Under the pieces are notes generated by a model that saw only the letters and a program-made list of their open reading frames with translations, was not told the DNA's origin and did no database searches. The position numbers and the translations under genes were made by a program. Positions 17,615-31,267 of a stretch of 64,000 nt of DNA are shown here, piece after piece. Position 1 is the first letter of the stretch; each line of letters begins with the position of its first letter. Source of the stretch: Arthonia radiata (taxonomy: Eukaryota; Ascomycota; Arthoniomycetes; Arthoniales; Arthoniaceae); assembly GCA_002989075.1 (NCBI GenBank), contig PSQN01000017.1, positions 2,425,453 through 2,489,452 of the forward strand, in the 5' to 3' direction.

Positions 17615-20304
17615 TTATCGTAGCCAATCCGTGTTCGGGTCATATGTATACATAAAGCTCGAGCTGTTGAGCTCGGAGCCATTGTTCATGTCAGAAGGGG
17701 AAAACGATGGTGCTCCTCCAGGGACCTGCAGCGTATTGGCCGAGGAGCCGGGTCCCGAACCTTCAAAGGGTGCGGACAGACGAGGTACATTGAAAAAGTC
17801 GAACACGTCTAGGTATTCCAGCTCGTTGGGCGCTGGGGTGCGAGAAGGTGTTACTGATCTTCCACGGACAGCCGTAGGTTGCCTTGGTTGCCGTGAGATG
17901 AGAAAGTCAAGATCGTACGCGCAGCGTCTGAGATCTGCAAGGATCTTGACAGAAGAGGGCGTCGACCGCTCACCGTTGGCCGTTCCGCTGGCGTTACGCT
18001 CTGACTCAACCAGCTCGTCTTGTACGCGCTGCAAGAGGGATGCATATCGATTAGCGACGTTCCAGTAGGCACCCATCTCGCGTAAAGTATCGACGAACAA
18101 TTTGATTTTCGGATCGACCTCGTGAGCGACTGTAGCTGCGTGCACCAGCAGCACTCGCGCAGCAACCCAGATGGAGAAGGCGAAAGGGGGGCCGAGCTTG
18201 TTCAGGAGGCCCGCGCTGTTGACGTGGCCACAAAGAGCGGCGATATTGGATACCGCGTCCAAGCAATTCTGGCTAGCAGCCAGTGATGGCTTGAATAGGT
18301 TGGACTGGTTTGACGGATACGCAGCTGACGAATGTAGACGGATAACAGTACTAAACGCGATGTCAGCAAGTCCCAATGGCTGCATCTGTCCCGCAGTACT
18401 TACGTGAAATACGTGGCATGGAGCATGACCCAACCACAGTTGACGATCTTATTGCCAGCCGAAGAATCAAAGAGTCTGGTCATGTTGCCGTACTCCTTCG
18501 GCAATTTTTGCTTCCATTCATTCAGCTCGTCATTGAGGCTGCGGTACTCTGATTGCCACGTTTCAACATCGCTCTGAGACCAGATGTCCACAGGCTTCCT
18601 CAAGAAAGAGTGTATCCGTGAAATGATGCCCACGACTTCGATATAATACGAGAACGAGCCAAGGTTTTCAGGTTTCTCGGTCGCCTTCTCCGGCACTCGA
18701 GGGGAGAACCACTTAGTGTCGACGTGCTGGTTTCTAGCGAACAGATCATCACGACAGGGCAGCTTTCGGTCCATCTCGCGTTCGTCGAGCGCAAAGTCGA
18801 ACGCTGTGGGCATTGTCGCATACCGATCTAGAATGTAGATCATCCAAAACAGGCGACGACGGCTTTCGTCCTCGATGAAGCTTACTGGTTCGGGCAAGAC
18901 AACCGCCCGCAATGTGTAGATCGAAGCAGATTGTGGCGAAACAAGCTGCGACGACTCCTCGACAGACAAGCCTGACTGGACGGCAGATCTCGCGATTAGT
19001 GCGAGGAGGTTCCAGCCCGGTGGGCCGTTAGATTCACCACACAGATCAAGTGCGAGGATCACGAGGGCTTGCAGAGACTTGACGCAGGAGTTCTCAAGGC
19101 CATACAAAAATACCTTCTGTTTGGACACTGAATGATAGTGCTGTTTCCTGTCTGGGGTCAGACGGGAGTCGTTGGAGAACCGTAAAGTTGTCGCAACAAT
19201 GGCGTGCAGCAATGCCCGGTCAGCGGTGTCCAGGCTGGAAGTGCCAAAAAGCGTATCGAGCGTGGTGCGTCTATGGAGGATCGGGCACCACGTGTTGATG
19301 TGCTTAAAATAGAGATCGGCCAAAGAGTAGAGGAGATCGTAAGGGGGTAGATCATGGTCTTGTCCAGTGGAGGACTGTCCCTCTGCCTGGTTCATGCCCG
19401 AAGACTTCAGAGGCGCGTTGGAGTTGGTATAATAATCTTGGAGGTGGGGTTGAATCATAGGATGCTCACCCTTTTCCGATGGTGGTGGGCCAGCTTGTGA
19501 GTAGCCATTGAATGGCCCACCATATGGGCCTGCGCTCCCCGAGCCTCCCATTCCTCCACTGCCCATACCAGAGCTTGCCGGTGTTGCATAGGGAGGCGGC
19601 TTTATGTCCTCCTGGATCTGGATGCCCCCGGCGACTTCTGAAGCGGTCATGCCCAGCGGGTGACTGAACACGTTAGCGTCAGGCGCATTTTGCGTCGGCG
19701 GTGCTGAGTGGGGCTGATCAGGTGTCTGAGGCCGCGGTGGAGGTATCAGATTGGGGATGTGAACAGCTTGGGTAAGCTGCTGGATGGTTTGCGATTGCGC
19801 ATGGAGTATGCGCTCAAGGTTGTCTGGATGCGATTAGTCTGTGCCTCGGTATTTTGTCAAGGACACACGACCTACCCAGTCGTGCTTCCAGCTCGCGACC
19901 ATAACCAGCACGTAGGCCGGGCTTCTTGCGCTCCTTGTATTCGCAATGCTGACTGTTCTTAGCGCACCAACTGTGATGTTGTTAGCTGTCGCGCTCTTCA
20001 AAACTTGATAGCCACGGTGCTGACATGCCCGCAGGTTGGTTGTCCACGATCGCCTGTATTCAGAGTCAGCACATGCAGTCCCTGGACATACACAGCATGC
20101 TCATCTCATGCATTTCACTTTGCGCTGCTTGCACAGTTCACAGCTAACGCTCATTGGGCGTTTTCGCTTCTTATCCGAACCCTCTTCGCCGTCGTGGACC
20201 GACTCATCTCCACTCCAGGCATCTTGCAGGTCAGCTGAGTGTTGCTCGGGGCTGGCGAGGTTGTTGGGCTGCTGGAGGCCTCCAGCTGCGAAGTTCGCTG
20301 ACAT
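17615..20304 (-). CDS. Zn2Cys6 transcription factor with fungal-specific regulatory domain
   Basis: Binuclear zinc cluster regulator, 822 aa, five exons: 20304-20112, 20053-20029, 19970-19876, 19823-18404 and 18350-17615. The zinc cluster is perfect: C55, C58, C65, C72, C75 and C82 (CX2CX6CX6CX2CX6C). It is preceded by KKRKRP and followed by a basic linker (KERKKPGLRAGYGRELEARL) and a short coiled coil (LERILHAQSQTIQQL). Introns 1 and 2 must be GC-AG introns around a 25-nt exon to restore the motif, while introns 3 and 4 are GT-AG. The middle (PPYDLLYSLADLYFKHINTW, CPILHRRTTLD, RRRLFWMIYILDRYA) is the fungal_trans domain, as in XlnR/Tea1-type activators. An acidic Ser-rich stretch precedes the zinc cluster. 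Target genes cannot be inferred: the neighbours are a beta-oxidation-type dehydrogenase and an LaeA-like gene. Confidence 0.9.
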
Positions 20305-26726: not shown

Positions 26727-29700
26727 ATGAATAATAACAGCGCTCGCTCAATCTTCACTGACATTCGCTTCACGCCCAAATACAGTCAAGAGACAGCTTC
26801 TATTCCAAGGCCCTCCGTCCGACGCTCCATCTCTGAGTCCGACCACCCCTTTCACAACCGCATCTTAGACCGAGCCCCAAACCTCCAAAAAGCTTCAACT
26901 TTACAGACACCGCTATCGAGTTCCAAAACCGTCGGTCATGCCCCATATGATGATCCTTCTGCGCAGGCTGGCTCTACACGCAGTACTCGAATTTCCCAAA
27001 GCACCCCGATAAGCGGCCAGAAGCGACCAGCAACGCCCAGCTTCGAGCGGAATCCCCGCCCGGATTCGACGCGCAAAAGACGACATAGAGACAGTACAAA
27101 GCTGAATCGACGTCTATCGCACGCCCCGTCACCCGCATCTGGACATCGCGCACCCCTTCCATCGCCGCTCTTCTTCTCGAATTCTCCGGCCCAAAGACCC
27201 CAACTACCCCCTCGCTTCTCGAGCTCAGAAGCAGGCGCAAAGATGCTAAGCAAAACGCAAGGAGAAGACAGAACTATCAAGACAGTGACGTTGGCTCGGG
27301 GATCGTATACCTCTGCCACCAGCCCCACCACGCCCTCAAGGCCAACACCACACAGTCGATACTCGTCCGAACGGAATAGCCTCCCCCGCATAAGCTCGGG
27401 CTCTCCTGAGACGTCGGAAGCGCATCCGGCCACTGTGTTGGATGATATCGGTCTGCCTGAGCTGTTGGAGCAAGATCCGCGACCAACCTTCGTTATCGAC
27501 CTCGTAGATACCAAGAATTTCCACTCCGATGGCTTGCATATACTCCATGCCAATTCGGCCTTTTATCATAAATCGACGCAAAATCACGTCGGGCAGGAGG
27601 GCCTTGATCAAAGCTTGGACGTGGCTCCTTGCATTGAGAATCTGCCGGCCTTGAAGACTTGGGTGTACGGCCGCGCGCAGGCGGAGATTGGCACAGCGCG
27701 ATACGGTGCGGTCCTAGAAGACGGTGACACGTTTTGGTCTTGCATTTTCTTGCGCAAGCGGCTTTGTGTAGTGAGCGGAACTGTGCGCTCCAACCCAACG
27801 CAAAGCAGTCACATCCTCGTGTCGACTCCCGCCAAGTCACCGTCTGTCACACATGCTCCCGCGTCATTCGAGCAGCCTGGTCTTACTGAGGAACCTGATA
27901 TCCCCCAGCATGATTCCACGTCTCTAGATGATTCTAATTATCACTCCGCAGCAGATCGAAATCGCTACAGCGATGAGTCCGTGTCACAGCCGAACATCGC
28001 CGTCCCAAGCATCGAGACTTCGAAATCAAGTTCCAATTCAACGGTCCACAGCGCGCAAGATTCTGTGTCATCATTCAGCAGGCATACAGTAGATCTGCCC
28101 GAACGTTATCCAGCTGAACATGTTCTTTCCGCTGCCGCTGCCGGCAATATTGACTCAATCAACAACGTGTCACATGGCGGAGAAGTTGGTTTCTTCGATT
28201 GGACGAGGCTGCCCGTATCTCATACCCTTCCCAACCACATACAGTTCGCACGTAGCATAGACTGGGCTCAGACGGCTCTCGGCCCAATCGAAACCTGGAA
28301 TGCCGATCTGAGGCAGATGTGCAACCTGATTATGGCGAGCCCGCATCCCGCAGCCATGTATTGGGGTGAGGATCTCGTAGCTATATACAATGAGGCTTAC
28401 GTGCTCCTTGCTGGCCAGAAGCATCCCACCTTGATGGGACAAAGCTATCGCGAAGCATGGGCGGAGATCTGGGACGACGTCAAGGAAGTATTCAACAGCG
28501 CTCAAACAACTGGTCAGGCGACGATGAAAGACGATGACTGCCTCTTCATCAGAAGAAATGACTTCTTGGAAGAGACCTACTTCTCGTGGTCGATCATCCC
28601 AATGGTGGGAGAGGATGGTTCAGTAATGGGCCTCTACAATCCCGCCTTTGAGAAAACTCGAAGAAAGATCGCCGAACGACGCATGCTCACACTTCGAGAG
28701 ATCGGTGAACGGACAGCAACCGCCAGAGATGTGAGCAGCTTCTGGGAAGAAGTTCTCGCTGCACTCGAATGCAACGAATTTGACACACCTTTTGTGCTCC
28801 TATATAGCTTGTCAGGCGATTCTGATTTCCTTGAGGACTCATCAGTCCATTCTAGTAACGCCACCGGGTTCTCTAATCAGCGGACATGCAGTCTTGAGGG
28901 TACCCTTGGTGTTCCAGAGGGGCATGCAGCGGCACCAACTTCAGCTGAAATGAGCGGTGATGAGGGATACGTGCCAATCTTCCGTGAAGTGCAGAAGACT
29001 AACAAAGCAGCTGTGCTGGATGTCAACCAGGGTGAACTGTCACCTAACTTACTTGAAGGACTCAATGTCAGAGGTTTCAGCGACCCAGTCACCTCGGTTG
29101 TCATTTGTCCTATACATCCCACGACCGGCGAATCGTCACTTGGATTCTTAGTCCTGGGTGTTAATCCTCGCCGACCTTTTGACGAAGACTATAGCCTGTT
29201 CGTTCAACTACTGAGCCGTCAGCTTGCTACGTCGCTTGCCTCCGTAGTGCTCTTCGAAGAAGAAATTAGACGCGGTCAGCAGGCCGCCAAGCTGGCTGCG
29301 TTGGACCGAATTGAGCTCTCGGAACAGCTGGCTGCGCGAACGCAGGAAGCAATCGAGTCCGAGACCAAATTCACGCGTATGGCGGAGTTCGTACCAGTAG
29401 GCGTGTTCATTGGGTCTTCTGATGGCATCATCACGTATTGCAATGAGTCCTGGTTTTCGATCACCCACGTTCCCTCGGGTAACATAGATAAATGGATGGA
29501 TTATGTGAAGGACGAGGACATGGGTCAAGTACGCAAGCTGTGGCACGACCTCACGGTTGTGAAGAAATCCGTCAGCGCCGAATTCAGATTCAACTCGCCG
29601 TGGACAGATCGGAACGGAGTCAAGGGTGACATGTGGGTGCTGTTCTCAGCGTATCCAGAGCGCCATCCTGATGGCACCTTGAAGAGTATCTTCGGAAGCA

Positions 29701-31267
29701 TCACAAACATTAGCAACCAGAAATGGGCCGAAGGCTTGCAAAAGCGGAAGATGGAAGAAGCTGTTGAGATGAAGCGGCAACAGGAGAACTTTATTGATAT
29801 CACAAGCCACGAAATGCGCAATCCGCTCAGCGCGATCCTTCAGTGTGCTGATGAGATCATTCTCTCATTGAGTGAACGCATGAAGACGATCAGCAGTAGC
29901 GAAGACAAGGTGCTGTTCGATGAAAACATCGACGCGGCCCATACAATAGCACTTTGTGCGCAGCACCAAAAGCGGATTGTGGATGACATTTTGACGCTGT
30001 CAAAGCTCGACTCTGCGCTGCTCATGGTGACGCCGGTTGACGTGCAGCCAGTGACGGTGGCTCAACGGGCGCTGAAGATGTTCGAAGGTGAAGTGCAGTC
30101 TGCTGACATTGAGATGCGGTTTAAGGTTGATCCTTCGTTGCAAGAGCTTGATGTAGATTGGTGCAAATTTGATCCGAGCCGCGTGCTCCAGGTATTAATC
30201 AATCTGACTACAAATGTTGGTGTCCTCTTGCCGCAAAAGAGCCACATCTTGAATGCTGACTGTGACAGGCGATCAAATTCACGACTTCGGAGAGCAAACG
30301 GACCATATCCATATCACTCGCAGCATCACGAGTCAAGTTCTCCGAGCTCAAGGACCCCGTCGTGAGCTATTTTCCCAGCCGCGAGAAGAAGTACAATAGC
30401 GAAGAAGGAGCCGAGTGGGGCGACGGTGAAGAGATCTACATTCAATTTGCAGTTCAGGATACCGGTCGTGGGCTTAGCACGGAGGAGAAAAAGCTTTTGT
30501 TCATGCGCTTTTCCCAAGCAAGTCCCCGCACGCACGTGCAATACGGTGGCAGTGGCCTAGGTTTGTTCATTTCGCGCGAACTGACAGAACTGCAAAATGG
30601 TCAGATAGGTGTGGCTTCCGAGGCAGGCCAGGGAAGCACGTTCGCGTTCTTCATCAAAGCACGAAAAACAGGACCACCAGTAACAGCATTGGACAAAGTT
30701 CTGGGAATGAGCGGTCGTCAGACGTCCGCCGTCAAGACTGCTGGGCGTTCGTCTACAACAATGCAGGCAGAAGGTTCCACGGGGAGTCCACATGCAAAAG
30801 CCCCACCAAAGAAGAAGCTTGATGGCGCCTTGAAGGTTTTAATCGTCGAGGACAACCTAGTGAATCAAAAAGTGTTACAAAAGCAGCTTCGCAACATCGG
30901 ATGCGAAACACACGTCGCCAATCACGGAGGAGAAGCACTTGATCGTCTGCGCGAGTCTTGGTTCGCCACAGAGCGCAAGGAAGATGCGATCGCGCTAGAT
31001 GTGGTGCTAATGGACCAGGAGATGCCGGTCATGGATGGCTTGACTTGCACTCGAAAGATACGGGAGTTAGAGAAGAAGGGCGAGTTTGCGAGGCATATCC
31101 CCGTGATTGCCGTGACGGCCAATGCGAGGGCCGAGCAGATCAGTACCGCAAGAGAAGCCGGCATGGACGATGTCGTGAGCAAACCATTTAGGATTCAAGA
31201 GCTGATACCGAAGATGGAGGAGCTCACTTTGCGGTTTCAGGAGCAGTCGCCGACGAGCGGCGCGTGA
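26727..31267 (+). CDS. Hybrid sensor histidine kinase
   Basis: Soluble two-component phosphorelay sensor, 1495 aa, two exons, 26727-30215 and 30269-31267. Order: a disordered Ser/Pro/Arg-rich N-terminus to about residue 240, a PAS-like part (RPTFVIDLVDTKNF), and a second sensor region starting near 500 (HIQFARSIDWAQTALGPIETW, AMYWGEDLVAIYNEAYVLLAG, PAS-like). Then come a GAF-like stretch, another PAS around 885-1000, the H-box FIDITSHEMRNPLSAIL with H1028, the N-box NLTTNAIKF split by the intron right after N1163, the G-boxes DTGRG and GGSGLGLFISREL, and a C-terminal receiver (LIVEDNLVNQKVL, phospho-acceptor D1412 in VVLMDQEMPVMDG, and SKPF). No TM segments. Signal and downstream HPt partner are unknown. 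The group number within fungal hybrid kinases was not assigned. The intron donor is the uncommon GTTGGT. Confidence 0.95.

What the first reader, a model, noticed from the sequence alone, without database searches (positions are those of the whole stretch)
19971..20111. Two consecutive GC-AG introns flanking a 25-nt microexon inside a zinc cluster
Seen: exon 1 stops after RKVK with T|GCATGA, and exon 2 (20053-20029) encodes DRGQPTC with split codons at both ends. It ends GG|GCATGT, and exon 3 begins T TGG TGC. Only these joins give C-x2-C-x6-C-x6-C-x2-C-x6-C exactly; every GT donor nearby leads to a stop or loses cysteines. Both introns are 58 bp. GCATGT is GTATGT with C at +2. Weak donors around a microexon would make zinc-cluster formation depend on splicing, a possible on/off control (inference).
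Basis: partly seen in the sequence, partly recalled or inferred. Interest (0 to 1): 0.75.

Follow-up and report, generated by a model that had tools for sequence, protein, structure and literature searches.

The report
Zinc-cluster microexon between GC-AG introns
A fungal gene-control protein appears to have its DNA-binding zinc cluster stitched together from three exons, one only 25 letters long, by two introns that both start with the rare GC instead of GT; the structure is well supported by sequence, but whether the fungus uses it as a switch is untested.

Summary
Confirmed. On the minus strand a Zn(II)2Cys6 transcription factor gene (20304-17615, 822 aa, PF00172 + PF04082) has five exons. 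Introns 1 and 2 (20111-20054, 20028-19971; 58 nt each) start with GC and flank a 25-nt exon encoding DRGQPTC; introns 3 and 4 are GT-AG. The cluster is intact in 111 of 120 listed relatives. Pairing with U1 is poor at intron 1 and moderate at intron 2. Retaining either intron or skipping the microexon truncates the protein at 67, 82 or 121 aa. Of 189 listed models of relatives, 45 lack a regular cluster, hinting at very short exons elsewhere in it. GC-AG introns are known in fungi, and a glucose-switched zinc-cluster microexon is reported for Trichoderma Xlr2 (PMC11121469). For regulation here there is no evidence either way: no RNA data, and two scans for relatives' DNA found none. A real, unusual gene structure; new variant of a known kind.

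The parts
17615..20304 (-). Zn(II)2Cys6 transcription factor gene, five exons, 822 aa, Zn_clus (aa 54-89) + Fungal_trans (aa 274-543)
20112..20304 (-). exon 1 (coding part): ...RPMSVSCELCKQRKVK + first base of the Cys3 codon; start codon is the ATG at 20304, chosen by eye
20054..20111 (-). intron 1, GC-AG, 58 nt, donor T|GCATGA
20065..20069 (-). branch-site-like CTGAC of intron 1
   Evidence: consensus recalled
20029..20053 (-). exon 2, 25-nt microexon: (C)DRGQPTC(G), holds two bases of the Cys3 codon and Cys4
19971..20028 (-). intron 2, GC-AG, 58 nt, donor GG|GCATGT
19981..19985 (-). branch-site-like CTAAC of intron 2
   Evidence: consensus recalled
19876..19970 (-). exon 3: (G)WCAKNSQHCEYKERKKPGLRAGYGRELEARL
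19824..19875 (-). intron 3, GT-AG (GTAGGT), 52 nt
18404..19823 (-). exon 4, linker and most of Fungal_trans
18351..18403 (-). intron 4, GT-AG (GTAAGT), 53 nt
17615..18350 (-). exon 5 to stop

Best explanation
This is a working Zn(II)2Cys6 regulator gene of a filamentous ascomycete, apparently near Arthoniomycetes. Its zinc cluster is coded across three exons: two introns with GC donors must both be removed, and the 25-nt microexon included, to build the DNA-binding domain. SHOWN from sequence: the gene structure, the six-cysteine spacing, the match to relatives, and the truncation that follows failure at either intron or skipping of the microexon. INFERRED: the introns are spliced mostly constitutively by the regular spliceosome, helped by short length and good branch-site motifs; failed transcripts give short products or are degraded, so splicing efficiency sets how much active factor is made rather than acting as a dedicated switch. 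The gene may be the counterpart of Tpc1 of Pyricularia/Neurospora (a lead only).
For: Exact joins and an 822-aa open frame; Zn_clus 6e-9 and Fungal_trans 1.2e-25 on the spliced protein; 1218 homologs at E<=1e-3, best 2.2e-296; cluster intact in 111 of 120 listed models; a single solution in the splice enumeration and products of 67, 82 and 121 aa on retention of intron 1, retention of intron 2 and microexon skipping; nearest solved structure Gal4, with the microexon residues aligned inside its cluster; one full-length locus in the genome, the next (C2:906563-908413) matching at 27% over the middle and 42% over the first 103 residues (query P0006). The best of three U1 candidates keeps the A that faces donor position +2, so no sign of a GC-adapted U1. 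Other introns checked are GT-AG, 6 of 6: introns 3 and 4 here and one each in four other window genes, joins judged by eye. Literature: GT-AG 98.7% in fungi, GC-AG under 1% in model organisms (PMC7072748, passages); non-canonical introns 'not uncommon in euascomycetes' (PMC8703528, passages; the sentence prints GC-AC).
Against: No transcript evidence. No relative's DNA, so conservation of the GC donors is unknown. An error at both donors cannot be excluded. U1 pairing was computed with a canonical U1 end from memory; the best U1 candidate of this genome (45 bits, below Rfam's 69.5) reads ATACTTACTG at its start, differing after the core, and the two weaker candidates did not show the core at their start. 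duplexfold energies are best duplexes, not forced into the splice register. For some of the six GT introns a GC donor would also keep the frame open (acyl-CoA dehydrogenase-like gene, symporter-like gene, intron 4); I chose by recalled protein motifs.
Confidence: 0.78

Rival explanations
1. Splicing switch: weak donors make inclusion of the microexon condition-dependent, so the cell turns the DNA-binding form on and off, as reported for Xlr2 in Trichoderma.
For: Poor U1 pairing at intron 1 and truncation on each failure examined; Xlr2 precedent: a 20-nt zinc-cluster microexon included without glucose (PMC11121469); models of relatives hint at very short exons in the cluster of the same factor.
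Against: No expression data. Residues and intron positions differ from Xlr2. None of the failures examined gives an in-frame isoform lacking only the DNA-binding domain; re-initiation, for example at Met163, would be needed.
Confidence: 0.15
2. Sequence or assembly error: one or both donors are GT in the organism.
For: GC donors are rare in fungi (PMC7072748); two in a row are rarer.
Against: Two sites 83 bases apart would both have to be wrong in the same way. The assembly is contiguous (33.5 Mb in 16 contigs), and the rest of the gene is open.
Confidence: 0.05
3. Other, GT-based splicing with a different reading frame.
For: GT donors exist nearby (GTGAAC 20141, GTGAAA 20118, GTGGCT 20015). 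A chain with the GC intron 1 and the GT donor at 20015 keeps 49/53 consensus residues but loses a cysteine.
Against: 0 of 720 open GT-only chains give the cluster; the best keeps 32/53. The cluster is intact in 111 of 120 listed relatives.
Confidence: 0.02

Closest known systems
Xlr2 microexon of Trichoderma virens (PMC11121469; outline, introduction, all of the results, discussion 3.1, 3.2 and 3.5, and figure legends seen)
   Same: A very short exon (20 nt) inside the Zn(II)2Cys6 cluster, not a multiple of three; reading into intron 1 gives an early stop; gene models of most Trichoderma species listed there missed it.
   Different: Introns canonical there; that microexon encodes PCRRCE (two cysteines), ours DRGQPTC; glucose-dependent inclusion is reported there and untested here.
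GC-AG introns of euascomycetes (Rep et al. 2006; not seen, known here through citations in PMC8703528 and PMC1973085, passages)
   Same: GC donor, AG acceptor, otherwise ordinary short introns; gene prediction mishandles them (quoted in PMC8703528; PMC5677156 passage, says Augustus does not recognise them).
   Different: Here two in a row flank a microexon inside a DNA-binding domain. No such case appeared in the listings, of which 38, 39 and 52 showed only 15 of 82, 15 of 40 and 12 of 146 papers; most listed papers were not opened.
Tpc1 of Pyricularia oryzae (MGG_01285) / Neurospora crassa NCU05996 (PMC5542705, passages)
   Same: Zn(II)2Cys6 regulator of filamentous fungi, single copy, 839 aa there; 822 aa and one full-length locus here.
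   Different: Orthology not tested: no sequence under that name was held. The P. oryzae homolog found (P0188, 894 aa) is 67% identical to a Thermothelomyces one; the paper gives 67% for M. oryzae against N. crassa, which is a likeness of figures, not proof.

Membership tests
Zn(II)2Cys6 transcription factors | Six cysteines C-x2-C-x6-C-x5-12-C-x2-C-x6-8-C and Pfam PF00172 | tested here: met
   Gal4 is the best solved match
Zn(II)2Cys6 transcription factors | Fungal-specific middle domain PF04082 | tested here: met
   1.2e-25
GC-AG introns | GC at the donor, AG at the acceptor, branch-site motif, usual fungal length | tested here: met
GC-AG introns | Splicing proven by transcripts | not testable with these tools
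   no RNA data
Xlr2-type zinc-cluster microexon switch | Exon of 30 nt or less inside the zinc cluster | tested here: met
   25 nt
Xlr2-type zinc-cluster microexon switch | Same encoded residues and canonical GT donors as Xlr2 | tested here: not met
   PCRRCE and canonical donors there; DRGQPTC and GC donors here
Xlr2-type zinc-cluster microexon switch | Condition-dependent inclusion | not testable with these tools
   no RNA data
Tpc1 orthologs | Reciprocal best match with MGG_01285 / NCU05996 | not tested
   lead from PMC5542705 passages

The most novel reading that the evidence does not exclude
The zinc cluster of this conserved regulator has been cut into microexons more than once in evolution: 25 nt between GC-AG introns here, and in Sordariomycetes probably a 24-nt CExCKQRK exon between introns at SVS|C and RK|VKC. 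The reason would be that splicing of the DNA-binding domain controls how much active factor is made, and GC donors would be one way to keep that splicing inefficient and therefore adjustable.
Probability: 0.13. Interest if true: 0.75.

Novelty: new variant of a known kind. Interest (0 to 1): 0.4.

Why it matters
If these donors limit splicing, every active molecule of a conserved regulator would depend on two unusual splice sites and a 25-nt exon: a directly testable case of splicing-controlled DNA binding in fungi. Even if splicing is constitutive, this place seems to defeat gene prediction: 45 of the 189 listed public models of this factor lack a regular zinc cluster. By class: 9 keep SVS and VKC but lose what lies between, 16 begin at or just before VKC, 10 jump from SVS to RN, 4 carry extra residues before VKC, 6 are other. 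Surveys that count zinc-cluster factors from models would miss or misdescribe such genes.

Tried and rejected
GC-AG frequency in this genome: no figure obtained. Whole-genome motif counts did not help: GCATGT pattern 145 matches (backwards control 295), GAATGT 194 (185), GTATGT 315 (200), with repeats in the lists. Of the 23 GC candidates printed there, 8 in the window were looked at; one (39657-39583) has good open frames on both sides, the others are doubtful. Of twelve hand queries, nine gave candidate joins or none of use; clear joins came from four genes other than this one (kinase-like, acyl-CoA dehydrogenase-like, symporter-like, Mak10-like; names from recalled motifs) plus intron 4.

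Relatives' DNA: one scan each of genome contigs (query P0004) and viral contigs (alignment of 26 homologs) found no relative, so gene-model errors were used as indirect evidence.

Limits of that evidence. Of 23 metagenome-source models in the lists, 17 lack a regular cluster but 6 have it whole, and 20 run unbroken over KCDRGQPSCGWC. If those predictions ignore introns, our two intron positions are absent there and the six have no intron in the cluster at all; I do not know how they were predicted. For NCBI models an unbroken protein says nothing about introns. The closest relative's model (P0004, Coniocarpon cinnabarinum, Arthoniomycetes) carries VDNQHV-DNLER, the microexon in the wrong frame joined to exon 4, as our own DNA gives AIVDNQPA-DNLER. 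That suggests the microexon exists there, but not what its donors are: the same model ends ...ATYFT, as if running into an intron 4 like ours, so it is simply poor. P0072 (Bogoriella) has SVSCDRG, which our DNA reproduces from a cryptic T|GT donor at 20141. P0033 and P0034 read RK-AC(S/N)T, where a GCATGT donor at another position would be read as Ala-Cys; possible, not shown.

A GC-adapted U1 was looked for and not seen. A search of papers for the protein motif found nothing.

Full report
What is there. The window lies in a 33.5-Mb, 16-contig fungal genome. On the minus strand, 20304-17615, five exons encode an 822-aa protein with Zn_clus at 54-89 and Fungal_trans at 274-543. Introns 1 and 2 start with GC; introns 3 and 4 start with GTAGGT and GTAAGT. 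Introns 1 and 2 are 58 nt each, end in CAG and hold CTGAC and CTAAC 11 and 10 bases before the acceptor. Between them lies a 25-nt exon.

Is it more than chance? A script listed one- and two-intron chains with splice sites between about 20170 and 30 bases before the end of exon 3, introns of 35-250 nt. With GT donors only, none of 720 open chains has the six-cysteine pattern. With GT and GC, exactly one of 5245 has it, 51/53 identical to the consensus of relatives. With AT, GA and GG added, 5 of 18327 have a cluster-like pattern, the same chain leading. The motif of intron 2 is not itself above chance in the genome (145 matches, 295 for the pattern read backwards); the argument rests on the protein.

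Relatives. A protein search gave 1218 homologs at E<=1e-3; the best 120 are listed. Of these 111 have the cluster intact, 81 of the 111 with CDRGQPSC at the microexon. The highest identity is to a model of Coniocarpon cinnabarinum (76% over 69% of the query; Arthoniomycetes). A second search, from a Sordariomycete, listed 69 models not in the first list. Over both lists 45 of 189 lack a regular cluster: 9 from the first list, 36 of the 69 new ones. The classes are: 9 keep SVS and VKC but lose CExCKxRK; 16 begin at or just before VKC; 10 jump from SVS to RN; 4 carry extra residues before VKC; 6 other. In nine models a Q stands right before VKC, as if an intron end CAG were read through. I infer, without DNA, that many Sordariomycetes and some others have introns at SVS|C and RK|VKC, which makes CExCKQRK a 24-nt exon. 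Against this stand six metagenome models with the whole cluster and the many intact NCBI models, which do not show whether introns exist. Whether our two intron positions occur elsewhere is not settled; the models P0004 and P0072 look as if they do in Coniocarpon and Bogoriella. The sample is neither random nor complete.

How it probably works. In the splice register the GC donors pair with a canonical U1 end at 4 + 1 GU (intron 1) and 6 + 1 GU (intron 2) of 11 positions, introns 3 and 4 at 6 + 3 and 9 + 0. Best duplexes of any register are -1.5, -3.8, -10.0 and -7.1 kcal/mol. With U at +2 intron 1 would be -1.9 and intron 2 -7.6, so the C matters at intron 2 while intron 1 is weak anyway. Retaining intron 1 stops translation at 67 aa, intron 2 at 82 aa, and skipping the microexon at 121 aa. 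The microexon supplies Cys4 and two bases of the Cys3 codon; in Gal4, the nearest solved relative, the matching cysteines are zinc ligands (recalled). So each active molecule needs both GC introns removed. I think splicing is mostly constitutive and its efficiency affects the amount of factor. A dedicated switch is possible and has no evidence here. The best of three U1 candidates keeps the base that faces position +2.

Known matter. GC-AG introns are an established class (PMC7072748, PMC8703528, PMC1973085; passages), and Augustus is said not to recognise them (PMC5677156, passage). Intron retention giving a truncated product is reported for a zinc-cluster gene of Aspergillus nidulans, AN1569, with many other zinc-cluster genes needing re-annotation (PMC8396895, passages). 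A zinc-cluster microexon with glucose-dependent inclusion is reported for Xlr2 of Trichoderma virens (PMC11121469, sections seen), with canonical donors and other residues. I saw no report of two consecutive GC-AG introns around a microexon in the listings, which were partly capped; most listed papers were not opened. The gene may correspond to Tpc1, a polarity regulator (PMC5542705, passages): a lead from length, copy number and conservation, not a test.

Base rate. If about 1% of introns were GC-AG and independent, a genome with some ten thousand neighbouring intron pairs would hold about one such pair by chance (my estimate; the number of pairs is assumed and the rate in this genome was not measured). 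The pair itself is rare but not startling. Its place, around a frame-breaking microexon in the DNA-binding domain, makes it worth a transcript test.

Noticed in passing
20111-19971: Four GCATG motifs in about 150 bases of the gene strand (two are the donors themselves) against 1.29 per kb per strand in the window. In animals (U)GCAUG is the RBFOX motif near microexons (recalled); I know of no fungal equivalent.
   Followed up: no
relatives P0001-P0189: Public gene models of this factor lack a regular zinc cluster in 45 of 189 listed cases, often with breaks at SVS|C and RK|VKC, which points to very short exons in the cluster of other ascomycetes.
   Followed up: partly
G000:C1:2000001-2100000 (L009-L018): Eight of the ten 10-kb blocks have only 20-28% G+C, while the next 100 kb is at 53-55%: a sharply two-part genome, probably repeat-rich degraded blocks.
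   Followed up: no
26727-31267 (+): Long histidine-kinase-like gene (by recalled motifs) with a GT-AG intron at about 30216-30268.
   Followed up: partly
39657-39583 (-): Possible further GC-AG intron (GCGTGA, 75 nt) leading into a 744-aa open frame; open on both sides in one frame, homology not checked.
   Followed up: no
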